From Pseudomonas sp. M30-35 (GTDB lineage: Bacteria; Pseudomonadota; Gammaproteobacteria; Pseudomonadales; Pseudomonadaceae), in contig NZ_CP020892.1 of assembly GCF_002163625.1 (NCBI RefSeq), forward strand, positions 2,418,001 through 2,482,000: 64,000 nucleotides of DNA, given 5' to 3'. The stretch's first letter is position 1; every line of letters starts with the position of its first letter. A program made the position numbers and the translations under genes. The notes under the pieces were generated by a model. It was not told where the DNA came from and did no database searches. It saw only the letters and a list, made by a program, of their open reading frames with translations. Shown here in pieces: positions 10,500 through 24,981 of this stretch.

Positions 10500-10500
10500 C

Positions 10501-10786: not shown

Positions 10787-10789
10787 TGC

Positions 10790-10927
10790 TCAAACCTCGC
10801 TAAGGGCATTAACAAGCTGCTCCTGCTCGCGCCATTTCCATACGACAACATGTGCCGTGTAATGCTGCAGGTTTTCTTTAAGCGGATTCATAGAAATTAT
10901 TTTGGCTTGTAGTTCTGTTTTAGTCAT
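10790..10927 (-). CDS. Small soluble protein (45 aa, copy A)
   Basis: MTKTELQAKIISMNPLKENL then a Trp- and Glu-rich C-terminus (VVVWKWREQEQLVNALSEV). Its ATG overlaps the stop of the 32-aa membrane gene in an ATGA junction. No family recognised. Supported mainly by tight packing within a run of overlapping small genes. Confidence 0.5.
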   Translation of the reverse strand: MTKTELQAKIISMNPLKENLQHYTAHVVVWKWREQEQLVNALSEV

Positions 10928-11022
10928 TTGCTGTAGATCCAAAAAGCTATGGCTAACGGAATTGCCGGTATCAGCATAGGAACCATCAAAACCTTGGCGA
11001 TTAGAGCAATGATCTCAATCAT
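10924..11022 (-). CDS. Tiny membrane protein downstream of zot (32 aa, copy A)
   Basis: MIEIIALIAKVLMVPMLIPA and further hydrophobic residues ending FWIYSK: a single transmembrane helix. It begins 4 bp after the zot stop codon and ends in an ATGA overlap with the next gene. Function unknown. Confidence 0.5.
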   Translation of the reverse strand: MIEIIALIAKVLMVPMLIPAIPLAIAFWIYSK

Positions 11023-11026
11023 TTGA

Positions 11027-12298
11027 TCACCATAAATGGCCGGGTTTGCCAGAGTTTACAACGGTTAGACGTGTTGCTGGTGGCACGTACTCAGCGGGCT
11101 TAAGGCTACGCGCTGGCGGCGCTGTTGCAACTGCCTCAGTCGATGGTTCTGGACTGCAAACGTTAGCGTAAACGCTCACCCAATCGCTAAGGTCAGTCGT
11201 TGAAACCAGCTTGACTTGACAGTTATCAATTGGAAAAACGTCCACGCCTTTGCGCCGAATATTGTCCACTGAAACGACTACGCCGTCTGGCGATCGCAGC
11301 AAATAAGCCTGTTTTTCACCTAAGCGAAAATGACCATCGATGCGCCAATCGGCATATCTGTCATGTACAGGCCGCTCAGGCTTGGCAGGCGCTTCGTCAG
11401 ACTGTGATTCATCCTGATCAGCATCAGGCAGCACCTCGACAGCAGCAGTCGCAACAGGCAAAGGCTCAGCCGGAATCACAACAGGATCGCGAAAGTAGAT
11501 CGCAGCAGCAATGCCCGCGGCGAAAAATGCGCCCGCAACTATTGGACGGCTAAATTGCTTCCAGTGGATTTTTGTCAGCCTCATGATTTTGTTCCAAGTG
11601 AGTGGCAAACGATAACGCCCGATCACGTACCAGGGCGCGAGCAGCTGGTAAGTCGAATGCGGATAAAAGTCAGAGAACGCCTGTTTGGTGTCGTAACAGT
11701 CGTACAGGTCAAAACCCCAGTACCACCAGCGATCAACAATCAAAGACGTAGGTAAATCACCGTAGCGAACAGAGGCAACATGCAGCTTGGGAAGCCGCAG
11801 AGGATCGCCAGTAATGATCTTCCAAATGATCGAAATCCCGGGTATCGACATCTTGTCCAGACGGCGGCAATAGACAACATGCTCAGCCAGTGCGAGCTTG
11901 GCTTGCTTGTCCACGATGGCGATATTTTGGACGATAAAAATAACGTCCCAGCCTTTTTTACGAGCATGCAAAAACCAGTTAATGACCTGCTGGCGTTCTT
12001 TATCAGCCCACTGGCGCGAGTTGAACCAAGTGCCGCATTCATCAAGAACAAGCAGACCATTTTTAGATTCATCGTAGGACGGATTACCGATGCCAATTGC
12101 ATCTAGGTCATCAATACCGGGCTTATCAGGAAGACGGTAAACAACCGCCCTCCTCGACTTCTCGCCAAACATCTTTTCAAGCCGAATATCAAGATTAGTT
12201 GCCACCTTACAGCCAGCGTGCAACTTGTCTTTAATACGGCCTACAGCTGCAAGTGTTTTGCCTGAGCCAAGCTTGCCAGTTACAAAGTAAACGGCCAT
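11027..12298 (-). CDS. zot: Zot-family assembly ATPase (pI), copy A (423 aa)
   Basis: Inner-membrane motor that drives extrusion and coating of phage ssDNA, the pI equivalent of Ff phages. The Walker A motif is GKLGSGKT near residue 8 and Walker B is GLLVLDECG near residue 105. The cytoplasmic ATPase domain covers about 1-200. A single membrane span near 260 (VAGAFFAAGIAAAIYF) is followed by a periplasmic tail of about 150 residues. Only the N-terminal domain shares the family with Vibrio zonula occludens toxin; no toxin role is implied. Its ATG overlaps the stop of the pVI-like gene. Confidence 0.9.
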   Translation of the reverse strand: MAVYFVTGKLGSGKTLAAVGRIKDKLHAGCKVATNLDIRLEKMFGEKSRRAVVYRLPDKPGIDDLDAIGIGNPSYDESKNGLLVLDECGTWFNSRQWADKERQQVINWFLHARKKGWDVIFIVQNIAIVDKQAKLALAEHVVYCRRLDKMSIPGISIIWKIITGDPLRLPKLHVASVRYGDLPTSLIVDRWWYWGFDLYDCYDTKQAFSDFYPHSTYQLLAPWYVIGRYRLPLTWNKIMRLTKIHWKQFSRPIVAGAFFAAGIAAAIYFRDPVVIPAEPLPVATAAVEVLPDADQDESQSDEAPAKPERPVHDRYADWRIDGHFRLGEKQAYLLRSPDGVVVSVDNIRRKGVDVFPIDNCQVKLVSTTDLSDWVSVYANVCSPEPSTEAVATAPPARSLKPAEYVPPATRLTVVNSGKPGHLW

Positions 12299-12642
12299 TA
12301 GAGATTCAACCTAAATTGAAGAACTCGCGTATTCCAATCGTAAACCCAACGCGCAATACGGGCAGTTAAATAAGCACCCATACAAGTGACAAAGTTATTA
12401 GGAACGATAATCCTAAAAGCCATACCAACTTCGGCAGGCGCAACATAATTAAGGCCTTGAAGAAGACCCCAAATTACAGAAAAGAATGTTCCAAAGAGAA
12501 CTAGAGAACCAGCGGCAAAAGCAGCCGTTAATGCAAACTTCTTCGTAAAAAAACGAACAAAGAAACTTAAGAGCGCTGCAAATAAACCACCTAAAACAGT
12601 AGCCAGCCAAGGAATACCAGCAACAACTAAAGGAATAGCCAT
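12298..12642 (-). CDS. pVI-like minor coat / membrane protein, copy A (114 aa)
   Basis: Very hydrophobic protein with about three membrane segments (PLVVAGIPWLATVLGGLFAA; ALTAAFAAGSLVLFGTFFSV; a C-terminal segment). Size, topology and position between the adhesin and zot match the inoviral pVI end-cap protein, which releases the virion from the membrane and helps hold pIII. It starts 2 bp after the adhesin stop codon and overlaps zot. Assignment rests on topology and gene order. Confidence 0.75.
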   Translation of the reverse strand: MAIPLVVAGIPWLATVLGGLFAALLSFFVRFFTKKFALTAAFAAGSLVLFGTFFSVIWGLLQGLNYVAPAEVGMAFRIIVPNNFVTCMGAYLTARIARWVYDWNTRVLQFRLNL

Positions 12643-12644
12643 AA

Positions 12645-14312
12645 TCAGTCCTCATTCTTACGAGTAAGTATATTAAAAATACCCATGCAAGTAGTTACAT
12701 AAACCAACCAACCAAGAATCCGCTTCATGCGCTCTAACTTGTCACAACTAGCAGATACAGTTTTACCAGTGCCATTCCAAAAAACAACATCACCACTACA
12801 GCCTGTCGAATAGCCAAACAGACCAAGCATGTAATCACCAGCGTCATCTAATTTAGACCGCTCAGTAAACATGCCATTAGGGTCACTAAAATCAGAAACA
12901 ACTTCGGCGGCAGCTGCGTCAAGCTTTTCAAGTTCTTTATCGCCGAAATCTACACTTTCTTTGTAATAAGTATTAGTTGGCTGATCTTGCAAAAGACCAT
13001 CAGGAAGTTTTAGTTCTATTTCAGATTGACCAGTAACATTACCGGCAGCATCTTTAGTGATAATTGAACCTTTAGCAGTACCGTCAGAAGAACCGCCTTT
13101 ACCCTGCCCGCTCTCACCACCATCATCACCGGGTTTAGAGCCGTCGCTAACCGTCACACAGGCAAAGCCGCCGGTTTCCTGATTGACCGAATAGCTGCCC
13201 GCTGGGCATGTTTCAGGCTTGTAATTAGCAGGTACACAAGTCGCATTCATCTCAGCGCCAGTACCAGCAAAGCCGGGGGTTTCGCCCTCTTTGCAGCCAC
13301 CAGAATCACCGGGCTTAGGCAGGCAAACGGTTTGCCCGCCAACAGTGCCGGATTGACCGCTTGGGCAACTGGGATCAGCACCGGGTTTAGGAATACAAAC
13401 CTGCTTGCCGTTAACAGCGCCAAACTGGCCGCCGGGACAGCTAGGGTCATCCTGACTAGGCTTAGGAAGGCAAACATATTCAAGGCTATCACCAGAACCA
13501 ACACCGCCTAGCTGAGTGCCGTCAGGGCAGCGTGCACGGCCATTACAGAACGGAGTTGTCTCGTTGTAATACCCAACAAAATCAGGACTATCCTTGGTGC
13601 ACTCACCGTCAGCAGGCGCAAAACACATACGAAAACCGGCGACGTTTGAGAGCACTCCGTCACCATCACAAACGCAGTCTTGAGTATCAGGATTCCAGTT
13701 ACTGGCGCTCGGGCAATTTTCGTCCTCAGGCCACTTGCAAGACTCGGTTTCGAAGTCATAAAACTGCCCTTCAGCACAGATGCTCTGACAAGTCATGGTT
13801 GCTGGATCAGGGGTTGATCCCGCTGGACACTCAAGCACGCATTCGCCAGTCACATCATCACGCACTGAATCACCAGGGCAAGCAACTGGAGCATCGCAGG
13901 CACCAGTTTGAGAGTTATAAATAGTCCCAACAGGACATGAGTCACCACCTCGATTTCCCGTATAACGATAACTGTCAATCCCTGCATTCTGATGGCCATA
14001 ACATCCATAACTGGTTTCGGAAACAGCTACATAGCCAAAAGCCCAAGGCTGACCACCGGGGTAAGTAGATGTTACATGTGCTAAATATTGAGTACAGGCA
14101 GCTTCAGGAGTAGAAGCCTGCCCCACCGGGAAACTACCAACAGATGGATAAGACCAATAATAATCAGCAGCAAAAGTGATAGAGGAAGTTAATGCGAATA
14201 CAAAAAAAAGAATTACTGATAAGGGCCGCTTAACAGTGCGGCTACAAATCGGCGCTTTGTGATATGCAAAAAATAGGAAGGATGTAACGAGTTTAACGAT
14301 GGAATAAATCAT
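12645..14312 (-). CDS. pIII-like adhesin, Cys-rich, copy A (555 aa)
   Basis: Receptor-binding tip protein. Order: signal segment (LSVILFFVFALTSSITFA|AD), a Cys-rich region of about 300 residues made of short CP-G-containing repeats (for example SCPGGQFGAVNGKQVCIPKPG-like units repeated near 280-330), a Gly/Ser/Asp-rich linker (KPGDDGGESGQGKGGSSDG), and a C-terminal membrane anchor (LGWLVYVTTCMGIFNI) with a basic tail. This follows the pIII plan. Start uncertain: the longer frame to 14348 runs through the terminator hairpin, so I use the ATG at 14312, but that puts about 35 residues before the clear signal peptide. Confidence 0.82.
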   Translation of the reverse strand: MIYSIVKLVTSFLFFAYHKAPICSRTVKRPLSVILFFVFALTSSITFAADYYWSYPSVGSFPVGQASTPEAACTQYLAHVTSTYPGGQPWAFGYVAVSETSYGCYGHQNAGIDSYRYTGNRGGDSCPVGTIYNSQTGACDAPVACPGDSVRDDVTGECVLECPAGSTPDPATMTCQSICAEGQFYDFETESCKWPEDENCPSASNWNPDTQDCVCDGDGVLSNVAGFRMCFAPADGECTKDSPDFVGYYNETTPFCNGRARCPDGTQLGGVGSGDSLEYVCLPKPSQDDPSCPGGQFGAVNGKQVCIPKPGADPSCPSGQSGTVGGQTVCLPKPGDSGGCKEGETPGFAGTGAEMNATCVPANYKPETCPAGSYSVNQETGGFACVTVSDGSKPGDDGGESGQGKGGSSDGTAKGSIITKDAAGNVTGQSEIELKLPDGLLQDQPTNTYYKESVDFGDKELEKLDAAAAEVVSDFSDPNGMFTERSKLDDAGDYMLGLFGYSTGCSGDVVFWNGTGKTVSASCDKLERMKRILGWLVYVTTCMGIFNILTRKNED

Positions 14313-14367
14313 AAGCGACCCTCGGCCAGTCCCGGGCTGCGCCCACAACTAGCCGAGGGGCGCTTAT
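14311..14367 (-). terminator. Strong hairpin after the major coat gene, copy A
   Basis: ATAAGCG-a-CCCTCGGC pairs with GCCGAGGG-g-CGCTTAT, 15 bp with one mismatch. It lies between the major coat and adhesin genes, where Ff phages place the terminator that keeps coat expression high and adhesin low. No T run follows, so it may also stabilise mRNA. Confidence 0.65.
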
Positions 14368-14380
14368 AACAGCACAAGCA

Positions 14381-14638
14381 TTAGGCCTGTCGAGCACCTT
14401 GCTTAACTTTGCGAATGACAAAGATACCGATAAGAACCGCACCGACAATCGGCCAAACGAGATCTTCAACTTGCGTCCAAGCCTCGCCCATATCAGTAAA
14501 CATTGTCGTAATTACAGTTGGCATGGTGTAAGCAGCATGCGCCGAAGCAGATGCAACAAGACCACCAATAACAACAGCACCCGAAGCCAACGCACGTTGT
14601 GCATTTTGAAACTTGAGGAACTCAAGACGTTTTTTCAT
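14381..14638 (-). CDS. Major coat protein (pVIII-like), copy A (85 aa)
   Basis: Precursor with a 35-residue leader ending SAHA|AYTMP and a mature protein of 50 residues, the same length as M13 pVIII. The mature part has an amphipathic acidic N-terminus (TDMGEAWTQVEDL), a membrane helix (VWPIVGAVLIGIFVI) and a basic DNA-facing tail (RKVKQGARQA). It would coat the filament in many copies. Its ATG overlaps the stop of the 40-aa gene, and a strong hairpin follows. Confidence 0.9.
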   Translation of the reverse strand: MKKRLEFLKFQNAQRALASGAVVIGGLVASASAHAAYTMPTVITTMFTDMGEAWTQVEDLVWPIVGAVLIGIFVIRKVKQGARQA

Positions 14639-14757
14639 ATGGAATCCACCGCTTTACGAACCATCAATAATTTAAGGCCCAGTGAATAACCTGTGACCCA
14701 TGAAACAAGGTAAGCACTAAAGAGATAAACCCAGTACGTAGTATCTTGATCAATCAT
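14635..14757 (-). CDS. Small membrane protein, pVII/pIX-like, copy A (40 aa)
   Basis: MIDQDTTYWVYLFSAYLVSW with one hydrophobic helix and a basic C-terminal end (KLLMVRKAVDSI). ATGA overlaps at both ends couple it to the neighbouring small genes. Position just before the major coat gene matches the pVII/pIX end-cap proteins of Ff phages; assignment is by size, topology and order. Confidence 0.6.
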   Translation of the reverse strand: MIDQDTTYWVYLFSAYLVSWVTGYSLGLKLLMVRKAVDSI

Positions 14758-14867
14758 CTTTGTTGCCCACCTATAAAACCCAGCCCGAAAGTAACAACCG
14801 AGCCGAGTGTTATGGCGACCCAAAAAAACAGGTCTGCCAAATCTTGCAAAGTAAGTTCGCCAGACAT
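14754..14867 (-). CDS. Small membrane protein, pVII/pIX-like, copy A (37 aa)
   Basis: MSGELTLQDLADLFFWVAIT then a hydrophobic helix and GGQQR. It precedes the 40-aa protein with an ATGA overlap, giving the usual pair of tiny end-cap proteins. Confidence 0.6.
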   Translation of the reverse strand: MSGELTLQDLADLFFWVAITLGSVVTFGLGFIGGQQR

Positions 14868-14891
14868 GGTTTAAATAACCTCTGGCAGAGA

Positions 14892-15230
14892 TTAACCAGC
14901 CGCCTGAATAGGCTTGGCAATCTGCATATTGACCGGCTTGCGGTCGCCAGACAGCCAGAAGTCAAAGCCAGCTTTGCCAGCGTTTGAAGCCCAAGCGCCA
15001 ACACGAACAGGCACAGTAATTGGCTTGCCTTTGAGTGCGTCGTAAGGGTGCTGAGCGCCCTTCTCAAGGTCAGATTTAGAGAGCTTGATGCTCACTGTTT
15101 TGGTTTCTGGAATGCCAAACTGATTGAGGTCTTCAACCTCGATCAAAATCAGGTGATCAGTGAACGAATTGCCGCTGTAAGTGCGTTCGTTTGCTTTGTA
15201 GCCATGGCACAGACCTGTAATTAACAACAT
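14892..15230 (-). CDS. ssDNA-binding protein (gpV-like), copy A (112 aa)
   Basis: Begins MLLITGLCHGYKANERTYSG and has a beta-rich, compact sequence with basic patches. Size and position directly after the replication gene match the OB-fold ssDNA-binding protein of filamentous phages, which coats plus strands before packaging and switches replication to strand accumulation. Its start overlaps the end of the 67-aa gene by 10 bp. The family is inferred from context more than from a diagnostic motif. Confidence 0.7.
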   Translation of the reverse strand: MLLITGLCHGYKANERTYSGNSFTDHLILIEVEDLNQFGIPETKTVSIKLSKSDLEKGAQHPYDALKGKPITVPVRVGAWASNAGKAGFDFWLSGDRKPVNMQIAKPIQAAG

Positions 15231-15424
15231 TTGATGTTCCTCTCTGACGTCAGTATCGGGCGGTCGCCCATTGGTTCTAGCGGTTCGGATGCGATGAAAC
15301 AGTCATCGCAAACACGAAATTCATAGGCCGGCAAAAGGTCTGGAGCGCATGCAGGTTCGTTCCAAATCTGGCCTAAGTACTCAGAGCAAAAGTCACAGAA
15401 ACAACGGCCTTGAACGATCATCAC
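15221..15424 (-). CDS. Small CxxC protein, copy A (67 aa)
   Basis: Two CxxC knuckles (CDFC and CDDC) about 30 residues apart look like a zinc ribbon. It lies between rep and the ssDNA-binding gene, overlapping rep in an ATGA junction. Function not recognised; similar small zinc-binding proteins occur at this place in several inoviruses. Confidence 0.6.
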   Translation of the reverse strand: MMIVQGRCFCDFCSEYLGQIWNEPACAPDLLPAYEFRVCDDCFIASEPLEPMGDRPILTSERNIKCC

Positions 15425-16812
15425 GCAGCCTCAACCGACGGCTCGACATACCAGTCCGGGCGCTGTGTGCTGAAATCGATCTGGAGCAGCTGGAGTACCG
15501 GCACAACGTTGCGAACGTTGTCGTGGTCTTTAAGGTTTTGCAGCATGGCTTTGGAAACCCCTACTGACTCGATGTCACGGACATGGTCGTAGAAGGTCCG
15601 GCGGGCCATTGATTTCATGGTTTCTTCCCAGCCGTAATCGCGAATGCTGCGAAAGGTACGAAAGAGGTTTCGAGCATATGCATCACTGGATTTACCAGGC
15701 GTAAACAGCCCCGGAATGATGCTACCTGTGGACTTATCGGCCCGGGCTTTAGTCCACTTGCCCTTCCCTACTTTGGTGAACTTTTCAATCAGTGCGGCCA
15801 GCACTTTTTCGTCATCTATACGTTTCATCGTCATACCCTCAAAGGCCGCGAACAATTCAGCAGTTACAGCGGTGTAACACTCTTGGATAAAGCACCTGCC
15901 CTCGCCTTGCAGATACTCTTGGTAGTCACACAACGCCCACAGATTGGTCGGAAGATTCCGGCGCTCTAGCCAGCGATGCATAACGGTTGCTTCGATGCGA
16001 AGCAAAAGGCGGGCGTACTCTTTGAGCCGCTCATCTTGGAGAACTTTCAAGGTGCGCGAGGCCGACAAAACCGACATAGGCACACGCTTGTTACGTCGAT
16101 AAATCTTGAACTCACGCACATGGGCGTTATCAAGGTCGTGACGGCGTTCCGGATCGCCCTTGGCACCTGCCGCAGACTTGAGAACCTTCTGAATTTCCAA
16201 AAGGAATTCAGGGCCTTTCAGATAGGCTTTGATCTTGCGCAAACGCCCGTCTTTAGCGCCCCAGTAAGCCGTTGTTTGGTAGTCGTCGCCCCGGTTGCGA
16301 GTCTGGCCATTGCTGACCCCACGCATGAACTGAATGACCTGTAACGCTGTCGGTTCATTCGGCATACGTGCCGAGTAAGTGCAATCGAGTCCGTAAACCT
16401 CAATGGCTTGCAGGTTTAGACGGCGGTAAAGCATTGGATAGGTGCCAGCCAACCACTTGAGCATCACCTCAGCACCAAGGCGAATGGATGTAGGCCCAAA
16501 AACGTTATGGCCTTGCAACAACTTGGCAGGACTGGCCTTTAATTCAACACCGGGCGCTAAGCGTTTACTGAAACTCTGGTGAAAAACCTTAAACGCCATT
16601 GGCGTATAGCTCGACGGTAAGGACTCCCATGCATGCGACAAGTCTTCACAGTCAAAACCCTGACCATCACACCGGCGAGAGATCCCGCCAGCAGCACGCA
16701 TCTGAACACCCAACGACTCCAGATCAACGACATGAAACGGCTTATCAGCCGTACCGATCTCATTGATCGACAGATCGTCAAAAGGGATGAACATATGGAT
16801 TCGATCAAGCAT
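15421..16812 (-). CDS. Phage replication initiator, gene II/X family, copy A (463 aa)
   Basis: Rolling-circle initiator that nicks the plus origin. Family marks: MLDRIHMFIPFDD at the start, SPAKLLQGHNVFG near residue 100, and TAYWGAKDGRLRKIKAYLKG near 205-225, which contains the candidate active tyrosines. The frame stays open to a GTG at 16890, but that stretch is the repeat-rich intergenic region facing the divergent regulator, so I start at 16812; an ATG at 16821 is an alternative. No strong ribosome site is visible for either. It overlaps the 67-aa gene downstream. Confidence 0.85.
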   Translation of the reverse strand: MLDRIHMFIPFDDLSINEIGTADKPFHVVDLESLGVQMRAAGGISRRCDGQGFDCEDLSHAWESLPSSYTPMAFKVFHQSFSKRLAPGVELKASPAKLLQGHNVFGPTSIRLGAEVMLKWLAGTYPMLYRRLNLQAIEVYGLDCTYSARMPNEPTALQVIQFMRGVSNGQTRNRGDDYQTTAYWGAKDGRLRKIKAYLKGPEFLLEIQKVLKSAAGAKGDPERRHDLDNAHVREFKIYRRNKRVPMSVLSASRTLKVLQDERLKEYARLLLRIEATVMHRWLERRNLPTNLWALCDYQEYLQGEGRCFIQECYTAVTAELFAAFEGMTMKRIDDEKVLAALIEKFTKVGKGKWTKARADKSTGSIIPGLFTPGKSSDAYARNLFRTFRSIRDYGWEETMKSMARRTFYDHVRDIESVGVSKAMLQNLKDHDNVRNVVPVLQLLQIDFSTQRPDWYVEPSVEAA

Positions 16813-16821
16813 AGGATGCAT

Positions 16822-16917
16822 GCACACACATAACATTTGAATCAAATGTAGACGTGCACATGCACACACGTCAACACTTATAACGTGCACACATGAATAT
16901 ATGTAGAGGTGTAATCA
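16822..16917. promoter_or_regulatory. Divergent promoter/operator of rep and regulator, copy A
   Basis: Contains a perfect palindrome ACATTTG-AAT-CAAATGT (16833-16849), an inverted repeat GACGTG-N10-CACGTC (16851-16872), and repeated GTGCACA / TGCACACA words. The density of symmetric elements between two divergent genes suggests operators for the small regulator. GAGGTG at 16906-16911 is the ribosome site of that gene. Confidence 0.6.
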
Positions 16918-17127
16918 ATGAGCAGAGACATGCCAACAAACATTCGACTGAGCCAATCAGAGCAAGAAACCCTGAGAAAAAAGGCTGTTGACATCAACAA
17001 AGAGCTGGTCAAAAGAGGCATGCAGCCACTTAAAGATTCAGAGCTTGTTCACGCCTTTTTAGAGAAGGCGATTAGCAATCTTGAAGTCACTGCATCAGGG
17101 GCGATAAGGGTTGTTTTCGATGATTGA
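16918..17127 (+). CDS. Small ribbon-helix-helix-like regulator, copy A (69 aa)
   Basis: The only rightward gene of the phage. MPTNIRLSQSEQETLRKKA, then a long helix and SELVHAFLEKAI, fits a beta-helix-helix DNA-binding fold. Transcribed divergently from rep across a repeat-rich operator, like the rstR/rstA pair of CTX-phi, so it probably represses phage replication. The match is by pattern, not by a named family. Good ribosome site GAGGTG. Confidence 0.65.
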   Translation: MSRDMPTNIRLSQSEQETLRKKAVDINKELVKRGMQPLKDSELVHAFLEKAISNLEVTASGAIRVVFDD

Positions 17128-17355
17128 AGCTGATCAAAAAATAGTCGATTAATGCGACTGTCGCACAAGAGTCCACCATTCGATACGGTGGACTCACACC
17201 CCAACCGGTGCCCGGTCGCGGCGCCCAAAAAAAAGCACGGCTGTCGCCCTTCGCCCCTCCGGGCCGATCGCAAATGTGCGGGTGTACCGAGTCGTTTGAG
17301 CCTATGGCCACGGAGAGCTAAAAGCGGGTTGGACAATGATGAGTGGATCTTTGCC
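17128..17355. other. Phage intergenic region with GTCCACC hairpin, copy A
   Basis: Holds a 7-bp perfect stem GTCCACC-N9-GGTGGAC at 17171-17193 and a GC-rich tract around an A8 run (about 17226-17233). No gene supported. Candidate part of the replication origin or terminator of the regulator gene. Confidence 0.4.
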
Positions 17356-17586
17356 CTAGAGGTCGAGGATCTGCCTGCAAAGGCTTTGTAGGGCTGCTAG
17401 GCGGCTATCAAGCTCGGACGACTCCCGGTCGATATCCGAGAGCCTAGAACGCATCTGGCGGGATTCTGCGACCACTCGCGGGTAGTCCTGCAGGACGTAA
17501 CAGACAGCATCCAGTTCATCGCGTGAAGGCGAATAAAGCTGGGCGTCTTTGACTAAGTAGGCGGGAATTTTGAGGGTAACGGTCAT
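17356..17586 (-). CDS. Small helical protein, first gene of leftward block, copy A (76 aa)
   Basis: MTVTLKIPAYLVKDAQLYSP followed by a heptad-like helix rich in Arg, Ser and Glu (RLSDIDRESSELDSRLAALQ), a probable coiled coil. Function unknown. Its start codon lies inside the left foot of the 104-nt stem-loop at 17585-17688, so its translation could depend on that structure. Confidence 0.55.
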   Translation of the reverse strand: MTVTLKIPAYLVKDAQLYSPSRDELDAVCYVLQDYPRVVAESRQMRSRLSDIDRESSELDSRLAALQSLCRQILDL

Positions 17587-17688
17587 TAGTCTGTGATCTC
17601 TAGGCGGTGCTGGAGGACAAGTCCAGTCCTTTACCGGGCCAGCAGCGCTACCGGCTACCGTACCTAGAAACGCAGATCACAGGCTAAT
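17585..17688. other. 104-nt multi-stem structure, candidate ori or packaging signal, copy A
   Basis: Outer arms ATTAGtCTGTGATCT and AGATCACAGgCTAAT pair at 14 of 15 positions. Inside them CTAGG/CCTAG and GCTGG/CCAGC pair again, giving a long nested hairpin. It lies next to the attP hairpin, in the non-coding block where inoviruses keep origins and packaging signals. Confidence 0.6.
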
Positions 17689-17704
17689 GATCGCTAGTGA
17701 GCAT

Positions 17705-17788
17705 CGCATAATCGAGATTATATGAAATTCGTCGCGGATCGAGAGATTTTCCGCACCAAATTTCACATCAATCTCAGTCCATTATGCG
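17705..17788. other. Folded attP hairpin at the copy A/copy B junction
   Basis: Three paired blocks: CGCATAAT (17705-17712) with ATTATGCG (17781-17788), GAGATT (17714-17719) with AATCTC (17770-17775), and GAAATT (17724-17729) with AATTTC (17759-17764). The unpaired bulge between the first two blocks is where the central region of a dif-like site would be. An inner hairpin GCGGA/TCCGC (17734-17754) caps it. This is the arrangement by which CTX-phi ssDNA forms a XerC/XerD substrate. Confidence 0.75.
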
Positions 17789-17793
17789 AAGCC

Positions 17794-17973
17794 TTAGCAT
17801 TCATCATGTGGCCTGCCAAGGCCGTCAAATCCCTCAGACCACGACTGCTCAAAACGCTCTTTGCAGTCATCACACCAATCAGAGCCGTCTGACTGGCTGT
17901 CACACTCACAGGAACGCCAACCATCTGCGGGAGCTTCAATAACAACACCGTCAGGCGCAATAAGCTCAGTCAT
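17794..17973 (-). CDS. Small Cys-rich protein, copy B (59 aa)
   Basis: Same sequence as 10501-10680. Here its stop codon lies beside the internal attP hairpin instead of a full dif site. Confidence 0.6.
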   Translation of the reverse strand: MTELIAPDGVVIEAPADGWRSCECDSQSDGSDWCDDCKERFEQSWSEGFDGLGRPHDEC

Positions 17974-18079
17974 CGTGTGGCGCCTGAGGATCAATGATCA
18001 GGAAAATAACGCCACCTACAAAAATAAAAACACCCAAGCAACTACCAATGACCTGCATAGCATCTAGGAACTCAATCAT
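17966..18079 (-). CDS. Tiny membrane protein, copy B (37 aa)
   Basis: Same sequence as 10673-10786; single transmembrane helix, coupled to the Cys-rich gene. Confidence 0.5.
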   Translation of the reverse strand: MIEFLDAMQVIGSCLGVFIFVGGVIFLIIDPQAPHDD

Positions 18080-18082
18080 TGC

Positions 18083-18220
18083 TCAAACCTCGCTAAGGGC
18101 ATTAACAAGCTGCTCCTGCTCGCGCCATTTCCATACGACAACATGTGCCGTGTAATGCTGCAGGTTTTCTTTAAGCGGATTCATAGAAATTATTTTGGCT
18201 TGTAGTTCTGTTTTAGTCAT
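18083..18220 (-). CDS. Small soluble protein, copy B (45 aa)
   Basis: Same sequence as 10790-10927; ATGA overlap with the preceding membrane protein gene. Confidence 0.5.
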   Translation of the reverse strand: MTKTELQAKIISMNPLKENLQHYTAHVVVWKWREQEQLVNALSEV

Positions 18221-18315
18221 TTGCTGTAGATCCAAAAAGCTATGGCTAACGGAATTGCCGGTATCAGCATAGGAACCATCAAAACCTTGGCGATTAGAGC
18301 AATGATCTCAATCAT
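18217..18315 (-). CDS. Tiny membrane protein downstream of zot, copy B (32 aa)
   Basis: Same sequence as 10924-11022; one transmembrane helix. Confidence 0.5.
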   Translation of the reverse strand: MIEIIALIAKVLMVPMLIPAIPLAIAFWIYSK

Positions 18316-18319
18316 TTGA

Positions 18320-19591
18320 TCACCATAAATGGCCGGGTTTGCCAGAGTTTACAACGGTTAGACGTGTTGCTGGTGGCACGTACTCAGCGGGCTTAAGGCT
18401 ACGCGCTGGCGGCGCTGTTGCAACTGCCTCAGTCGATGGTTCTGGACTGCAAACGTTAGCGTAAACGCTCACCCAATCGCTAAGGTCAGTCGTTGAAACC
18501 AGCTTGACTTGACAGTTATCAATTGGAAAAACGTCCACGCCTTTGCGCCGAATATTGTCCACTGAAACGACTACGCCGTCTGGCGATCGCAGCAAATAAG
18601 CCTGTTTTTCACCTAAGCGAAAATGACCATCGATGCGCCAATCGGCATATCTGTCATGTACAGGCCGCTCAGGCTTGGCAGGCGCTTCGTCAGACTGTGA
18701 TTCATCCTGATCAGCATCAGGCAGCACCTCGACAGCAGCAGTCGCAACAGGCAAAGGCTCAGCCGGAATCACAACAGGATCGCGAAAGTAGATCGCAGCA
18801 GCAATGCCCGCGGCGAAAAATGCGCCCGCAACTATTGGACGGCTAAATTGCTTCCAGTGGATTTTTGTCAGCCTCATGATTTTGTTCCAAGTGAGTGGCA
18901 AACGATAACGCCCGATCACGTACCAGGGCGCGAGCAGCTGGTAAGTCGAATGCGGATAAAAGTCAGAGAACGCCTGTTTGGTGTCGTAACAGTCGTACAG
19001 GTCAAAACCCCAGTACCACCAGCGATCAACAATCAAAGACGTAGGTAAATCACCGTAGCGAACAGAGGCAACATGCAGCTTGGGAAGCCGCAGAGGATCG
19101 CCAGTAATGATCTTCCAAATGATCGAAATCCCGGGTATCGACATCTTGTCCAGACGGCGGCAATAGACAACATGCTCAGCCAGTGCGAGCTTGGCTTGCT
19201 TGTCCACGATGGCGATATTTTGGACGATAAAAATAACGTCCCAGCCTTTTTTACGAGCATGCAAAAACCAGTTAATGACCTGCTGGCGTTCTTTATCAGC
19301 CCACTGGCGCGAGTTGAACCAAGTGCCGCATTCATCAAGAACAAGCAGACCATTTTTAGATTCATCGTAGGACGGATTACCGATGCCAATTGCATCTAGG
19401 TCATCAATACCGGGCTTATCAGGAAGACGGTAAACAACCGCCCTCCTCGACTTCTCGCCAAACATCTTTTCAAGCCGAATATCAAGATTAGTTGCCACCT
19501 TACAGCCAGCGTGCAACTTGTCTTTAATACGGCCTACAGCTGCAAGTGTTTTGCCTGAGCCAAGCTTGCCAGTTACAAAGTAAACGGCCAT
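18320..19591 (-). CDS. zot: Zot-family assembly ATPase (pI), copy B (423 aa)
   Basis: Same sequence as 11027-12298. Walker A GKLGSGKT, Walker B GLLVLDECG and the membrane span are intact, so this copy should also be functional. Confidence 0.9.
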   Translation of the reverse strand: MAVYFVTGKLGSGKTLAAVGRIKDKLHAGCKVATNLDIRLEKMFGEKSRRAVVYRLPDKPGIDDLDAIGIGNPSYDESKNGLLVLDECGTWFNSRQWADKERQQVINWFLHARKKGWDVIFIVQNIAIVDKQAKLALAEHVVYCRRLDKMSIPGISIIWKIITGDPLRLPKLHVASVRYGDLPTSLIVDRWWYWGFDLYDCYDTKQAFSDFYPHSTYQLLAPWYVIGRYRLPLTWNKIMRLTKIHWKQFSRPIVAGAFFAAGIAAAIYFRDPVVIPAEPLPVATAAVEVLPDADQDESQSDEAPAKPERPVHDRYADWRIDGHFRLGEKQAYLLRSPDGVVVSVDNIRRKGVDVFPIDNCQVKLVSTTDLSDWVSVYANVCSPEPSTEAVATAPPARSLKPAEYVPPATRLTVVNSGKPGHLW

Positions 19592-19935
19592 TAGAGATTC
19601 AACCTAAATTGAAGAACTCGCGTATTCCAATCGTAAACCCAACGCGCAATACGGGCAGTTAAATAAGCACCCATACAAGTGACAAAGTTATTAGGAACGA
19701 TAATCCTAAAAGCCATACCAACTTCGGCAGGCGCAACATAATTAAGGCCTTGAAGAAGACCCCAAATTACAGAAAAGAATGTTCCAAAGAGAACTAGAGA
19801 ACCAGCGGCAAAAGCAGCCGTTAATGCAAACTTCTTCGTAAAAAAACGAACAAAGAAACTTAAGAGCGCTGCAAATAAACCACCTAAAACAGTAGCCAGC
19901 CAAGGAATACCAGCAACAACTAAAGGAATAGCCAT
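19591..19935 (-). CDS. pVI-like minor coat protein, copy B (114 aa)
   Basis: Same sequence as 12298-12642; overlaps zot by one base at its end. Confidence 0.75.
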   Translation of the reverse strand: MAIPLVVAGIPWLATVLGGLFAALLSFFVRFFTKKFALTAAFAAGSLVLFGTFFSVIWGLLQGLNYVAPAEVGMAFRIIVPNNFVTCMGAYLTARIARWVYDWNTRVLQFRLNL

Positions 19936-19937
19936 AA

Positions 19938-21605
19938 TCAGTCCTCATTCTTACGAGTAAGTATATTAAAAATACCCATGCAAGTAGTTACATAAACCAA
20001 CCAACCAAGAATCCGCTTCATGCGCTCTAACTTGTCACAACTAGCAGATACAGTTTTACCAGTGCCATTCCAAAAAACAACATCACCACTACAGCCTGTC
20101 GAATAGCCAAACAGACCAAGCATGTAATCACCAGCGTCATCTAATTTAGACCGCTCAGTAAACATGCCATTAGGGTCACTAAAATCAGAAACAACTTCGG
20201 CGGCAGCTGCGTCAAGCTTTTCAAGTTCTTTATCGCCGAAATCTACACTTTCTTTGTAATAAGTATTAGTTGGCTGATCTTGCAAAAGACCATCAGGAAG
20301 TTTTAGTTCTATTTCAGATTGACCAGTAACATTACCGGCAGCATCTTTAGTGATAATTGAACCTTTAGCAGTACCGTCAGAAGAACCGCCTTTACCCTGC
20401 CCGCTCTCACCACCATCATCACCGGGTTTAGAGCCGTCGCTAACCGTCACACAGGCAAAGCCGCCGGTTTCCTGATTGACCGAATAGCTGCCCGCTGGGC
20501 ATGTTTCAGGCTTGTAATTAGCAGGTACACAAGTCGCATTCATCTCAGCGCCAGTACCAGCAAAGCCGGGGGTTTCGCCCTCTTTGCAGCCACCAGAATC
20601 ACCGGGCTTAGGCAGGCAAACGGTTTGCCCGCCAACAGTGCCGGATTGACCGCTTGGGCAACTGGGATCAGCACCGGGTTTAGGAATACAAACCTGCTTG
20701 CCGTTAACAGCGCCAAACTGGCCGCCGGGACAGCTAGGGTCATCCTGACTAGGCTTAGGAAGGCAAACATATTCAAGGCTATCACCAGAACCAACACCGC
20801 CTAGCTGAGTGCCGTCAGGGCAGCGTGCACGGCCATTACAGAACGGAGTTGTCTCGTTGTAATACCCAACAAAATCAGGACTATCCTTGGTGCACTCACC
20901 GTCAGCAGGCGCAAAACACATACGAAAACCGGCGACGTTTGAGAGCACTCCGTCACCATCACAAACGCAGTCTTGAGTATCAGGATTCCAGTTACTGGCG
21001 CTCGGGCAATTTTCGTCCTCAGGCCACTTGCAAGACTCGGTTTCGAAGTCATAAAACTGCCCTTCAGCACAGATGCTCTGACAAGTCATGGTTGCTGGAT
21101 CAGGGGTTGATCCCGCTGGACACTCAAGCACGCATTCGCCAGTCACATCATCACGCACTGAATCACCAGGGCAAGCAACTGGAGCATCGCAGGCACCAGT
21201 TTGAGAGTTATAAATAGTCCCAACAGGACATGAGTCACCACCTCGATTTCCCGTATAACGATAACTGTCAATCCCTGCATTCTGATGGCCATAACATCCA
21301 TAACTGGTTTCGGAAACAGCTACATAGCCAAAAGCCCAAGGCTGACCACCGGGGTAAGTAGATGTTACATGTGCTAAATATTGAGTACAGGCAGCTTCAG
21401 GAGTAGAAGCCTGCCCCACCGGGAAACTACCAACAGATGGATAAGACCAATAATAATCAGCAGCAAAAGTGATAGAGGAAGTTAATGCGAATACAAAAAA
21501 AAGAATTACTGATAAGGGCCGCTTAACAGTGCGGCTACAAATCGGCGCTTTGTGATATGCAAAAAATAGGAAGGATGTAACGAGTTTAACGATGGAATAA
21601 ATCAT
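19938..21605 (-). CDS. pIII-like adhesin, copy B (555 aa)
   Basis: Same sequence as 12645-14312. An adhesin is the gene expected to vary between co-resident phages, so the lack of any difference argues for recent duplication. Confidence 0.82.
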   Translation of the reverse strand: MIYSIVKLVTSFLFFAYHKAPICSRTVKRPLSVILFFVFALTSSITFAADYYWSYPSVGSFPVGQASTPEAACTQYLAHVTSTYPGGQPWAFGYVAVSETSYGCYGHQNAGIDSYRYTGNRGGDSCPVGTIYNSQTGACDAPVACPGDSVRDDVTGECVLECPAGSTPDPATMTCQSICAEGQFYDFETESCKWPEDENCPSASNWNPDTQDCVCDGDGVLSNVAGFRMCFAPADGECTKDSPDFVGYYNETTPFCNGRARCPDGTQLGGVGSGDSLEYVCLPKPSQDDPSCPGGQFGAVNGKQVCIPKPGADPSCPSGQSGTVGGQTVCLPKPGDSGGCKEGETPGFAGTGAEMNATCVPANYKPETCPAGSYSVNQETGGFACVTVSDGSKPGDDGGESGQGKGGSSDGTAKGSIITKDAAGNVTGQSEIELKLPDGLLQDQPTNTYYKESVDFGDKELEKLDAAAAEVVSDFSDPNGMFTERSKLDDAGDYMLGLFGYSTGCSGDVVFWNGTGKTVSASCDKLERMKRILGWLVYVTTCMGIFNILTRKNED

Positions 21606-21660
21606 AAGCGACCCTCGGCCAGTCCCGGGCTGCGCCCACAACTAGCCGAGGGGCGCTTAT
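21604..21660 (-). terminator. Strong hairpin after major coat gene, copy B
   Basis: Same 15-bp stem as at 14311-14367. Confidence 0.65.
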
Positions 21661-21673
21661 AACAGCACAAGCA

Positions 21674-21931
21674 TTAGGCCTGTCGAGCACCTTGCTTAAC
21701 TTTGCGAATGACAAAGATACCGATAAGAACCGCACCGACAATCGGCCAAACGAGATCTTCAACTTGCGTCCAAGCCTCGCCCATATCAGTAAACATTGTC
21801 GTAATTACAGTTGGCATGGTGTAAGCAGCATGCGCCGAAGCAGATGCAACAAGACCACCAATAACAACAGCACCCGAAGCCAACGCACGTTGTGCATTTT
21901 GAAACTTGAGGAACTCAAGACGTTTTTTCAT
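21674..21931 (-). CDS. Major coat protein, copy B (85 aa)
   Basis: Same sequence as 14381-14638; leader of 35 and mature coat of 50 residues. Confidence 0.9.
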   Translation of the reverse strand: MKKRLEFLKFQNAQRALASGAVVIGGLVASASAHAAYTMPTVITTMFTDMGEAWTQVEDLVWPIVGAVLIGIFVIRKVKQGARQA

Positions 21932-22050
21932 ATGGAATCCACCGCTTTACGAACCATCAATAATTTAAGGCCCAGTGAATAACCTGTGACCCATGAAACA
22001 AGGTAAGCACTAAAGAGATAAACCCAGTACGTAGTATCTTGATCAATCAT
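21928..22050 (-). CDS. pVII/pIX-like protein, copy B (40 aa)
   Basis: Same sequence as 14635-14757. Confidence 0.6.
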   Translation of the reverse strand: MIDQDTTYWVYLFSAYLVSWVTGYSLGLKLLMVRKAVDSI

Positions 22051-22160
22051 CTTTGTTGCCCACCTATAAAACCCAGCCCGAAAGTAACAACCGAGCCGAG
22101 TGTTATGGCGACCCAAAAAAACAGGTCTGCCAAATCTTGCAAAGTAAGTTCGCCAGACAT
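22047..22160 (-). CDS. pVII/pIX-like protein, copy B (37 aa)
   Basis: Same sequence as 14754-14867. Confidence 0.6.
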   Translation of the reverse strand: MSGELTLQDLADLFFWVAITLGSVVTFGLGFIGGQQR

Positions 22161-22184
22161 GGTTTAAATAACCTCTGGCAGAGA

Positions 22185-22523
22185 TTAACCAGCCGCCTGA
22201 ATAGGCTTGGCAATCTGCATATTGACCGGCTTGCGGTCGCCAGACAGCCAGAAGTCAAAGCCAGCTTTGCCAGCGTTTGAAGCCCAAGCGCCAACACGAA
22301 CAGGCACAGTAATTGGCTTGCCTTTGAGTGCGTCGTAAGGGTGCTGAGCGCCCTTCTCAAGGTCAGATTTAGAGAGCTTGATGCTCACTGTTTTGGTTTC
22401 TGGAATGCCAAACTGATTGAGGTCTTCAACCTCGATCAAAATCAGGTGATCAGTGAACGAATTGCCGCTGTAAGTGCGTTCGTTTGCTTTGTAGCCATGG
22501 CACAGACCTGTAATTAACAACAT
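22185..22523 (-). CDS. ssDNA-binding protein, copy B (112 aa)
   Basis: Same sequence as 14892-15230. Confidence 0.7.
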   Translation of the reverse strand: MLLITGLCHGYKANERTYSGNSFTDHLILIEVEDLNQFGIPETKTVSIKLSKSDLEKGAQHPYDALKGKPITVPVRVGAWASNAGKAGFDFWLSGDRKPVNMQIAKPIQAAG

Positions 22524-22717
22524 TTGATGTTCCTCTCTGACGTCAGTATCGGGCGGTCGCCCATTGGTTCTAGCGGTTCGGATGCGATGAAACAGTCATC
22601 GCAAACACGAAATTCATAGGCCGGCAAAAGGTCTGGAGCGCATGCAGGTTCGTTCCAAATCTGGCCTAAGTACTCAGAGCAAAAGTCACAGAAACAACGG
22701 CCTTGAACGATCATCAC
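22514..22717 (-). CDS. Small CxxC protein, copy B (67 aa)
   Basis: Same sequence as 15221-15424; two CxxC knuckles. Confidence 0.6.
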   Translation of the reverse strand: MMIVQGRCFCDFCSEYLGQIWNEPACAPDLLPAYEFRVCDDCFIASEPLEPMGDRPILTSERNIKCC

Positions 22718-24105
22718 GCAGCCTCAACCGACGGCTCGACATACCAGTCCGGGCGCTGTGTGCTGAAATCGATCTGGAGCAGCTGGAGTACCGGCACAAC
22801 GTTGCGAACGTTGTCGTGGTCTTTAAGGTTTTGCAGCATGGCTTTGGAAACCCCTACTGACTCGATGTCACGGACATGGTCGTAGAAGGTCCGGCGGGCC
22901 ATTGATTTCATGGTTTCTTCCCAGCCGTAATCGCGAATGCTGCGAAAGGTACGAAAGAGGTTTCGAGCATATGCATCACTGGATTTACCAGGCGTAAACA
23001 GCCCCGGAATGATGCTACCTGTGGACTTATCGGCCCGGGCTTTAGTCCACTTGCCCTTCCCTACTTTGGTGAACTTTTCAATCAGTGCGGCCAGCACTTT
23101 TTCGTCATCTATACGTTTCATCGTCATACCCTCAAAGGCCGCGAACAATTCAGCAGTTACAGCGGTGTAACACTCTTGGATAAAGCACCTGCCCTCGCCT
23201 TGCAGATACTCTTGGTAGTCACACAACGCCCACAGATTGGTCGGAAGATTCCGGCGCTCTAGCCAGCGATGCATAACGGTTGCTTCGATGCGAAGCAAAA
23301 GGCGGGCGTACTCTTTGAGCCGCTCATCTTGGAGAACTTTCAAGGTGCGCGAGGCCGACAAAACCGACATAGGCACACGCTTGTTACGTCGATAAATCTT
23401 GAACTCACGCACATGGGCGTTATCAAGGTCGTGACGGCGTTCCGGATCGCCCTTGGCACCTGCCGCAGACTTGAGAACCTTCTGAATTTCCAAAAGGAAT
23501 TCAGGGCCTTTCAGATAGGCTTTGATCTTGCGCAAACGCCCGTCTTTAGCGCCCCAGTAAGCCGTTGTTTGGTAGTCGTCGCCCCGGTTGCGAGTCTGGC
23601 CATTGCTGACCCCACGCATGAACTGAATGACCTGTAACGCTGTCGGTTCATTCGGCATACGTGCCGAGTAAGTGCAATCGAGTCCGTAAACCTCAATGGC
23701 TTGCAGGTTTAGACGGCGGTAAAGCATTGGATAGGTGCCAGCCAACCACTTGAGCATCACCTCAGCACCAAGGCGAATGGATGTAGGCCCAAAAACGTTA
23801 TGGCCTTGCAACAACTTGGCAGGACTGGCCTTTAATTCAACACCGGGCGCTAAGCGTTTACTGAAACTCTGGTGAAAAACCTTAAACGCCATTGGCGTAT
23901 AGCTCGACGGTAAGGACTCCCATGCATGCGACAAGTCTTCACAGTCAAAACCCTGACCATCACACCGGCGAGAGATCCCGCCAGCAGCACGCATCTGAAC
24001 ACCCAACGACTCCAGATCAACGACATGAAACGGCTTATCAGCCGTACCGATCTCATTGATCGACAGATCGTCAAAAGGGATGAACATATGGATTCGATCA
24101 AGCAT
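22714..24105 (-). CDS. Phage replication initiator, copy B (463 aa)
   Basis: Same sequence as 15421-16812, with the same start uncertainty (GTG at 24183, ATG at 24114 or 24105). Confidence 0.85.
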   Translation of the reverse strand: MLDRIHMFIPFDDLSINEIGTADKPFHVVDLESLGVQMRAAGGISRRCDGQGFDCEDLSHAWESLPSSYTPMAFKVFHQSFSKRLAPGVELKASPAKLLQGHNVFGPTSIRLGAEVMLKWLAGTYPMLYRRLNLQAIEVYGLDCTYSARMPNEPTALQVIQFMRGVSNGQTRNRGDDYQTTAYWGAKDGRLRKIKAYLKGPEFLLEIQKVLKSAAGAKGDPERRHDLDNAHVREFKIYRRNKRVPMSVLSASRTLKVLQDERLKEYARLLLRIEATVMHRWLERRNLPTNLWALCDYQEYLQGEGRCFIQECYTAVTAELFAAFEGMTMKRIDDEKVLAALIEKFTKVGKGKWTKARADKSTGSIIPGLFTPGKSSDAYARNLFRTFRSIRDYGWEETMKSMARRTFYDHVRDIESVGVSKAMLQNLKDHDNVRNVVPVLQLLQIDFSTQRPDWYVEPSVEAA

Positions 24106-24114
24106 AGGATGCAT

Positions 24115-24210
24115 GCACACACATAACATTTGAATCAAATGTAGACGTGCACATGCACACACGTCAACACTTATAACGTGCACACATGAATATATGTAGA
24201 GGTGTAATCA
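24115..24210. promoter_or_regulatory. Divergent promoter/operator, copy B
   Basis: Same palindromes as at 16822-16917. Two identical operator sets would share the repressor made by either copy. Confidence 0.6.
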
Positions 24211-24420
24211 ATGAGCAGAGACATGCCAACAAACATTCGACTGAGCCAATCAGAGCAAGAAACCCTGAGAAAAAAGGCTGTTGACATCAACAAAGAGCTG
24301 GTCAAAAGAGGCATGCAGCCACTTAAAGATTCAGAGCTTGTTCACGCCTTTTTAGAGAAGGCGATTAGCAATCTTGAAGTCACTGCATCAGGGGCGATAA
24401 GGGTTGTTTTCGATGATTGA
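24211..24420 (+). CDS. Small RHH-like regulator, copy B (69 aa)
   Basis: Same sequence as 16918-17127. Confidence 0.65.
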   Translation: MSRDMPTNIRLSQSEQETLRKKAVDINKELVKRGMQPLKDSELVHAFLEKAISNLEVTASGAIRVVFDD

Positions 24421-24648
24421 AGCTGATCAAAAAATAGTCGATTAATGCGACTGTCGCACAAGAGTCCACCATTCGATACGGTGGACTCACACCCCAACCG
24501 GTGCCCGGTCGCGGCGCCCAAAAAAAAGCACGGCTGTCGCCCTTCGCCCCTCCGGGCCGATCGCAAATGTGCGGGTGTACCGAGTCGTTTGAGCCTATGG
24601 CCACGGAGAGCTAAAAGCGGGTTGGACAATGATGAGTGGATCTTTGCC

Positions 24649-24879
24649 CTAGAGGTCGAGGATCTGCCTGCAAAGGCTTTGTAGGGCTGCTAGGCGGCTA
24701 TCAAGCTCGGACGACTCCCGGTCGATATCCGAGAGCCTAGAACGCATCTGGCGGGATTCTGCGACCACTCGCGGGTAGTCCTGCAGGACGTAACAGACAG
24801 CATCCAGTTCATCGCGTGAAGGCGAATAAAGCTGGGCGTCTTTGACTAAGTAGGCGGGAATTTTGAGGGTAACGGTCAT
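24649..24879 (-). CDS. Small helical protein, copy B (76 aa)
   Basis: Same sequence as 17356-17586. Confidence 0.55.
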   Translation of the reverse strand: MTVTLKIPAYLVKDAQLYSPSRDELDAVCYVLQDYPRVVAESRQMRSRLSDIDRESSELDSRLAALQSLCRQILDL

Positions 24880-24981
24880 TAGTCTGTGATCTCTAGGCGG
24901 TGCTGGAGGACAAGTCCAGTCCTTTACCGGGCCAGCAGCGCTACCGGCTACCGTACCTAGAAACGCAGATCACAGGCTAAT
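24878..24981. other. 104-nt multi-stem structure, copy B
   Basis: Same nested stem-loop as at 17585-17688. Confidence 0.6.

What the first reader, a model, noticed from the sequence alone, without database searches (positions are those of the whole stretch)
17705..17788. CTX-phi-like folded attP in a Pseudomonas phage
Three separated blocks pair to make a hairpin whose outer stem is the XerC arm of dif, with a bulge at the central region and an inner capping hairpin. This is the form expected if single-stranded phage DNA is the integration substrate.
Basis: partly seen in the sequence, partly recalled or inferred. Interest (0 to 1): 0.7.

Follow-up and report, generated by a model that had tools for sequence, protein, structure and literature searches.

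The report
Folded integration site of Pseudomonas filamentous prophage
This is the place where a thread-like bacterial virus, carried as two identical copies in a Pseudomonas chromosome, appears to fold its own single-stranded DNA into a hairpin that imitates the chromosome's dif site, so that the cell's own enzymes can join it in; the mechanism is known from the cholera phage, while its use by a whole group of Pseudomonas phages was not found described.

Summary
Confirmed. Window 17701-17792 lies between two identical 7,293-bp tandem copies of an integrase-less inovirus at the chromosomal dif (10472-10499). Two inverted dif-like sites, with 10-11-nt and 6-nt centres, fold into one hairpin: XerC-arm stem, central bulge, XerD-arm stem, cap (-25.7 kcal/mol, z -7.1 on the phage coding strand; -20.6, z -5.8 on the other). 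Prophage ends match the published CTX-phi outcome: one rebuilt dif, attP1/attP2 left behind. The window and relatives carry 69 distinct hairpins with this fold; in 31 aligned, 16 of 29 pairs show two-sided compensatory change and the surplus central bases lie on the coding strand in 31 of 31. A covariance model finds it in 28 of 398 Pseudomonas-genus genomes; dif lies downstream on the same strand in 29 of 29 loci holding both. It also sits at the ends of integrase-less P. aeruginosa phages 36-2, 42-1 and 97-1, whose integration route was left open in print. Best reading: CTX-type ssDNA integration by host XerCD, a new Pseudomonas clade of a known kind. Against: the bases next to the XerC cut match dif at 2 of 3 here, and nothing was tested at the bench.

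The parts
17701..17792 (-). Folded attP at the phage-phage junction; minus strand = phage coding strand
   Evidence: folds -25.7 kcal/mol, z -7.07; covariance-model hit 81.8 bits on -, 32.8 bits on +
17782..17792 (-). attP1 XerC arm GCTTCGCATAA
   Evidence: sequence; identical to the arm of the regenerated dif
17772..17781 (-). attP1 central region TGGACTGAGA (10 nt; 11 as aligned); GGAC bulges out in the fold
17761..17771 (-). attP1 XerD-like arm TTGATGTGAAA
   Evidence: sequence; pairs with the attP2 XerD arm
17729..17760 (-). capping hairpin
17718..17728 (+). attP2 XerD-like arm TTATATGAAAT
17712..17717 (+). attP2 central region TCGAGA (6 nt)
17701..17711 (+). attP2 XerC arm GCATCGCATAA
10472..10499 (-). 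Chromosomal dif rebuilt by insertion: phage XerC arm + host centre TGTATA + host XerD arm TTATGTTAAAT
   Evidence: no mismatch, 0 expected by chance; only match at up to 3 mismatches to the intact 25-base dif core in the 4.93-Mb genome; GC skew changes sign nearby
24994..25085 (-). Outer copy of the hairpin, with XerC arm ACTTCGCGTAA from the integration target instead of the phage
   Evidence: fold -21.7 vs -25.7 for the inner copy
10489..17781 (-). Prophage copy 1 (7,293 bp)
   Evidence: 7293 of 7293 compared positions identical to copy 2
17782..25074 (-). Prophage copy 2 (7,293 bp)
22714..24183 (-). Replication protein G2P (PF05144, PF05155); also 15421-16890
22185..22523 (-). ssDNA-binding G5P-like; also 14892-15230
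21674..21931 (-). major coat protein Gp8; also 14381-14638
19938..21641 (-). 567-aa protein in the position of the adsorption protein; also 12645-14348
   Evidence: weak family matches; role inferred
19591..19935 (-). minor coat protein (DUF5455); also 12298-12642
18320..19591 (-). assembly protein pI (Zot family); also 11027-12298
24211..24420 (+). 69-aa ORF on the opposite strand (phrog_5642, function unknown), repressor position; also 16918-17127
   Evidence: role inferred
24649..24879 (-). 76-aa ORF, first gene after the hairpin (phrog_13909); also 17356-17586
25087..25560 (-). relic of an earlier related phage that probably supplied the outer XerC arm (inferred)
   Evidence: 25210-25509 repeats the phage end at 65%; ORF resemblance by eye

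Best explanation
The hairpin is the attachment site attP(+) of a filamentous ssDNA phage that integrates like CTX-phi. In the packaged, coding (+) strand, two inverted dif-like sites pair with each other and create one XerC/XerD-type site with surplus bases in the centre of one strand. Host XerC and XerD bind this folded site and the double-stranded dif. XerC cuts at the border of the XerC arm and exchanges one pair of strands; replication or repair finishes the join. The product is host XerC arm - phage - phage XerC arm + host centre + host XerD arm, so a working dif is rebuilt at one end and further copies or phages can stack, while the double-stranded prophage no longer shows the folded site. 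Shown by sequence: fold, conserved pairing, strand bias, position at dif, junctions, no integrase found, presence of host XerC and XerD. Inferred from CTX-phi: XerC-first chemistry, the ssDNA substrate, replicative resolution, irreversibility.
For: Fold on both strands, better on the coding strand; coding strand more stable in 33 of 34 clusters and 67 of 69 distinct hairpins. Covariation: 29 pairs, 93.9% of cells paired (79.1% in shuffles, 32-41% when slid), 16 pairs with two-sided change, score 0.450 vs 0.192. Top centre 8-12 nt, bottom 5-7 nt as aligned, top longer in 31 of 31; CTX-phi has 12 and 5-7 (PMC4246890 passages). Junctions as published for CTX-phi: one dif rebuilt, attP1/attP2 left (PMC3089051); the arm next to dif equals the inner phage-phage arm, not the outer one, in 4 of 5 arrays with dif in view (the fifth, L180, matches neither). 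dif on the hairpin's coding strand and downstream in 29 of 29 loci holding both. No recombinase among the 10 ORFs scanned; host XerC and XerD over cut-off, and none of the 6 places matched lies in the prophage. Model R1: 28 of 398 genus genomes at E <= 0.001, the window's own among them. It hits 4 of 4 fetched P. aeruginosa phage records without an annotated integrase and 0 of 4 with one, nor If1 or fd (the last two identified).
Against: Of the three bases next to the XerC cut only two (TG) match dif (TGT) here; over 29 loci position 1 matches in 29, position 2 in 20, position 3 in 11, and 5 match all three. On the other exchanged strand the window's phage pairs with dif at 1 of 3. The plus strand also folds well. 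attP2 here is itself dif-like (2 mismatches to the core with open centre, 6-nt centre), so double-stranded use is not excluded by sequence alone. The hairpins were picked by folding with paired XerC arms, which favours paired cells and the coding strand, though not compensatory change. 17 of 78 Rep-scan loci lacked the hairpin by that filter. No empty site with matching flanks was found in 57 genomes. No experiment was done.
Confidence: 0.88

Rival explanations
1. Double-stranded, VGJ-phi-like integration: XerC recombines dif with attP1 (or attP2) in the replicative form, and the hairpin is a by-product of carrying two inverted sites.
For: The end product of XerC-only exchange would be the same (inference from PMC4246890); attP2 is dif-like with a 6-nt centre.
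Against: The junctions use attP1, whose centre is 10-11 nt; for CTX-phi neither site works as duplex (PMC4246890 passages). attP2 use would give different junctions. A duplex site needs no compensatory changes in the XerD arm and cap, nor surplus central bases on one strand in 31 of 31.
Confidence: 0.07
2. The conserved hairpin serves mainly another ssDNA task (complementary-strand origin, packaging signal), and its XerC arms are there only for integration.
For: Filamentous phages have such hairpins in non-coding regions (established knowledge, recalled); the cap is conserved in shape.
Against: The conserved stem is made of the XerC and XerD arms themselves and ends at the integration point; R1 does not find it in If1, fd, Pf1 or three integrase-bearing P. 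aeruginosa phages (193 and 538 end bases of two of them not examined). Short elements in which no coat or Zot gene was seen also carry it.
Confidence: 0.04
3. Chance inverted repeat or relic; the tandem array arose by homologous recombination.
For: Tandem copies are identical, which unequal crossing-over could also give.
Against: z -7.07, covariation, 69 distinct hairpins with the same fold. How the second copy arose is a separate question from what the site is.
Confidence: 0.01

Closest known systems
CTX-phi attP(+) (CTX-type IMEX), Vibrio cholerae
   Same: Inverted attP1/attP2, attP1 with long centre, attP2 with 5-7-nt centre, folded (+) strand, host XerCD, dif rebuilt on one side (PMC3089051, first third of the text read; PMC4246890 and PMC5357621 passages)
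   Different: Host genus; here the whole span, 88 nt from arm to arm, is one hairpin, where CTX-phi has a forked ~150-nt hairpin with ~90 nt between the sites; third base next to the XerC cut free; If1/M13-like pI and G2P-type Rep
CUS-1-phi and Ypf-phi
   Same: PMC3089051 says their attP sites have features for direct ssDNA integration
   Different: Enterobacterial hosts; not compared here by name
P. aeruginosa prophages 36-2, 42-1, 97-1 (PMC10675462)
   Same: No integrase; 11-12-nt terminal repeats; R1 finds the folded site from position 1 of each record; the repeat begins TTCGCATAATG, the XerC arm core plus TG
   Different: That paper, in the passages read, says only that host-encoded integrases may be used; the whole word dif does not occur in its main text
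VGJ-phi-type IMEX
   Same: Host XerCD at dif, XerC exchange
   Different: Single dif-like attP used as duplex (PMC4246890 passages)
Pf1/Pf4/Pf5-like phages
   Same: Pseudomonas filamentous phages
   Different: The prophages of that group carry their own integrase and use tRNA or other sites (PMC7549136 passages)
UP-phi901 phages of Enterobacterales
   Same: Tandem arrays at dif (PMC7307601 passages)
   Different: Folded attP not mentioned: hairpin, attP and folded occur 0 times in its main text

Membership tests
CTX-type IMEX | Filamentous ssDNA phage without own integrase | tested here: met
   Families of Rep, coat, G5P, pI; no recombinase among 10 ORFs scanned; no XerC/XerD-family match in the prophage
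CTX-type IMEX | Inserted at dif | tested here: met
   dif 10472-10499 at the prophage end
CTX-type IMEX | Two inverted dif-like sites close together, long centre in attP1, 5-7 nt in attP2 | tested here: met
   10-11 nt and 6 nt; 88 nt from outer arm to outer arm
CTX-type IMEX | (+) strand folds into a hairpin joining both sites | tested here: met
   (prediction; that the coding strand is the packaged one is established knowledge)
CTX-type IMEX | Prophage leaves one dif plus attP1/attP2 | tested here: met
CTX-type IMEX | Bases next to the XerC cut pair between attP and dif | tested here: inconclusive
   2 of 3 in the window; 29, 20 and 11 of 29 loci at positions 1-3
CTX-type IMEX | Integration from ssDNA by XerC catalysis alone, XerD only structural | not testable with these tools
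   needs biochemistry
CTX-type IMEX | No excision of the prophage | not testable with these tools
   needs cultures or reads
VGJ-type IMEX | Single dif-like attP, usable as duplex | tested here: not met
   two inverted sites; the one used has a 10-11-nt centre; duplex activity itself not testable
Pf1-like phages | Phage-encoded integrase | tested here: not met

The most novel reading that the evidence does not exclude
Single-stranded, XerC-driven integration is the standard lysogeny route of a large clade of Pseudomonas inoviruses, including the integrase-less phages of P. aeruginosa, and also of capsid-less satellites that carry the same folded site; its specificity needs only one or two bases at the XerC cut instead of three, with the second base tuned to the dif type of the host, which would let these phages use most dif sites.
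Probability: 0.5. Interest if true: 0.65.

Novelty: new member of a known kind. Interest (0 to 1): 0.5.

Why it matters
In the papers seen here, folded-ssDNA integration is documented for one cholera phage and predicted for two enterobacterial ones (PMC3089051). A diverged clade gives evolutionary evidence, by compensatory base changes, that the folded form is what selection sees; it offers a model outside V. cholerae, and suggests how integrase-less P. aeruginosa prophages get into the chromosome, a point left open in PMC10675462. The relaxed third base makes the published pairing rule directly testable.

Tried and rejected
Duplex (VGJ-type) use of attP2: rejected because the junctions fall at attP1. 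Empty-site search with the left flank in 57 genomes: matches were mostly the dif sequence itself; one gene-level match (G015) lay elsewhere; no occupied/empty pair. Close DNA relatives among 50,697 phage records: none by megablast; 53 records with partial matches by blastn. A simple rule of three paired bases at the XerC cut: met in 5 of 29 loci. An early arm-pair scan gave chance pairs, for example in L003, L017 and L018; filtered by energy and an arm motif, after which one hit, L181 at 2563, was dropped by hand. L181 has another, model-detected hairpin, kept in the dif comparison. Of the 78 Rep-scan loci 61 pass the hairpin filter; among the 17 others R1 finds a cut-off copy in L100 and weak ones in L166 and L155. 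Of 80 Zot-scan loci 5 pass. For alignment A1, 27 of the 34 cluster representatives were used, 7 with long caps were left out and 4 further cluster members were added, so some rows are near relatives. In the class sample 3 of 368 genomes other than the window's own have a match.

Full report
What is there. The window holds two head-to-tail copies of a 7,293-bp filamentous phage, identical at 7293 of 7293 compared positions, genes mostly on the minus strand: G2P-type replication protein, a 67-aa ORF, G5P-like protein, Gp8 coat protein, a 567-aa protein in the adsorption position, a DUF5455 minor coat protein and a Zot-family assembly protein. None of the ten ORFs scanned is a recombinase. The prophage ends at a perfect dif, 10472-10499 on the minus strand, the only match at up to three mismatches to the intact dif core in the 4.93-Mb genome, near a change of GC skew. 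The host has XerC and XerD genes over the curated cut-offs elsewhere. A genus-mate's contig with the same length and hairpin as a named Pseudomonas record indicates that the genus is Pseudomonas.

The hairpin. At 17701-17792 two dif-like sites face each other. On the minus strand attP1 reads GCTTCGCATAA-TGGACTGAGA-TTGATGTGAAA; on the plus strand attP2 reads GCATCGCATAA-TCGAGA-TTATATGAAAT. As ssDNA the minus strand folds at -25.7 kcal/mol (z -7.07) and the plus strand at -20.6 (z -5.78), no shuffle of 200 doing as well in either case. In the minus-strand fold the XerC arms form the outer stem, GGAC of the attP1 centre bulges out, the XerD arms and the rest of the centre pair, and a cap closes the loop. 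After correction for GC none of 5,326 window segments is as stable. The minus strand is the coding strand; that this is the packaged strand of filamentous phages is established knowledge, not tested here.

Junctions. The inner copy of the hairpin has the phage's own XerC arm; the outer copy (24994-25085) has the arm ACTTCGCGTAA of the integration target, which probably came from an earlier related phage whose relic lies at 25087-25560 (inference). The arm that now completes dif is the phage's. This is the product described for CTX-phi: one new dif and two dif-like sequences left behind (PMC3089051, part 1 of 3 read). In four of the five arrays with dif in view (window, L243, L245, L246) the sequence before dif equals the inner phage-phage junction and not the outer one; in L180 it equals neither. 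In 7 of the 9 arrays folded the inner hairpins are more stable than the first one, and in two (L245, L217) equal, as expected if the full stem belongs to the circular phage genome.

Relatives. Scans with Rep and Zot proteins in viral contigs and genomes, and genus genomes, gave 88 hairpins in 75 loci, window included, 69 distinct, in 34 clusters at 90% identity. The aligned set of 31 keeps 29 pairs in 93.9% of cells, against 79.1% in shuffles and 32-41% with the partner strand slid; 16 pairs show changes on both sides, in 130 cells against 38.6 in shuffles. The XerC stem hardly varies and was a search criterion, so the covariation comes from the XerD arm, the paired part of the centre and the cap. 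The top centre has 8-12 nt and the bottom 5-7 as aligned, the top longer in 31 of 31; the coding strand folds better in 33 of 34 clusters and 67 of 69 distinct hairpins. For CTX-phi 12 and 5-7 are reported (PMC4246890 passages).

Spread. The covariance model R1 (rough E-values) finds the site in 28 of 398 Pseudomonas-genus genomes at E <= 0.001, the window's own included, and in 3 of 368 other genomes of the class sample. Where hairpin and dif (up to 2 mismatches) lie in one locus, dif is on the coding strand and downstream in 29 of 29; some of these loci are close relatives. R1 also finds it in four P. aeruginosa phage records without an annotated integrase (36-2, 42-1, 97-1, 5a-DAzarov) and in none of four with one (54-4, 99-2, 62-2, Pf1), nor in If1 or fd; for 54-4 and 99-2 the last 193 and 538 bases were not read. 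PMC10675462 (passages) lists 11-12-nt terminal repeats for the integrase-less groups and leaves the integration route open; in the three records read those repeats begin with the XerC arm core. Its fourth integrase-less group (17897) was not found and not examined (one search was a guess at its accession).

How it works. Best reading: host XerC and XerD take the folded (+) strand as a dif partner, XerC exchanges one strand pair, replication completes the join. The steps are inferred from CTX-phi. The main departure is the homology next to the XerC cut: over 29 loci the first base matches in 29, the second in 20, the third in 11, all three in 5; in the window two of three match. On the bottom strand of the folded site the second base goes with the dif type (G in 5 of 6 loci with a TC.. 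centre, in 4 of 22 with a TG.. centre; Fisher p 0.007, uncorrected, relatedness ignored). The window's phage has G there although its dif is of the TG type, so it may have come from a host with the other dif type, or the rule is looser here.

Literature. Six full-text searches of an open-access library listed no title or abstract opening that reports a folded attP or dif integration for Pseudomonas filamentous phages; passages were read in seven papers, the other listed papers were not opened. PMC7549136 contrasts Pf phages with dif users; PMC6053426 mentions dif only for chromosome architecture. Subscription papers are largely not held, so this is absence from that listing only.

Noticed in passing
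L240 8818-11153; L247 10011-12442; L248 8329-9874: Short elements (1.5-2.4 kb) between a folded attP and dif in three genomes share a piece resembling the C-terminal part of Rep (48-53% identity) and a ~115-aa protein of no PHROGs family (30-38%; the L240-L247 pair did not match), with no coat or Zot gene seen: candidate satellites, or deletion relics.
   Followed up: partly
window 25087-25560: Relic of an earlier related phage beside the array; suggests stacked insertions at a dif that is rebuilt each time.
   Followed up: partly
window 17169-17195 and 24462-24488: Palindrome GAGTCCACC-ATTCGATAC-GGTGGACTC between the repressor-position ORF and the 76-aa ORF: candidate rolling-circle origin or packaging hairpin.
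   Followed up: no
window 18320-19591 and 22714-24183: Among phage records the assembly protein scores best with If1 (48.5% over 86%) while the Rep DNA scores best with P. aeruginosa phage 97-1: mosaic genome.
   Followed up: partly
L245 1594-5477; L180 4584-7676: Arrays in which one phage copy is cut down and holds ORFs that look like an IS3-type transposase pair (by eye).
   Followed up: no
L241 9757-11483: A hairpin-to-dif element of 1.7 kb that keeps the first small ORF and a piece that looks like the end of Zot (by eye): deletion derivative.
   Followed up: no
L184 (PQ758391): Record labelled Caudoviricetes that looks like a filamentous phage by its size, G2P gene and matches.
   Followed up: no
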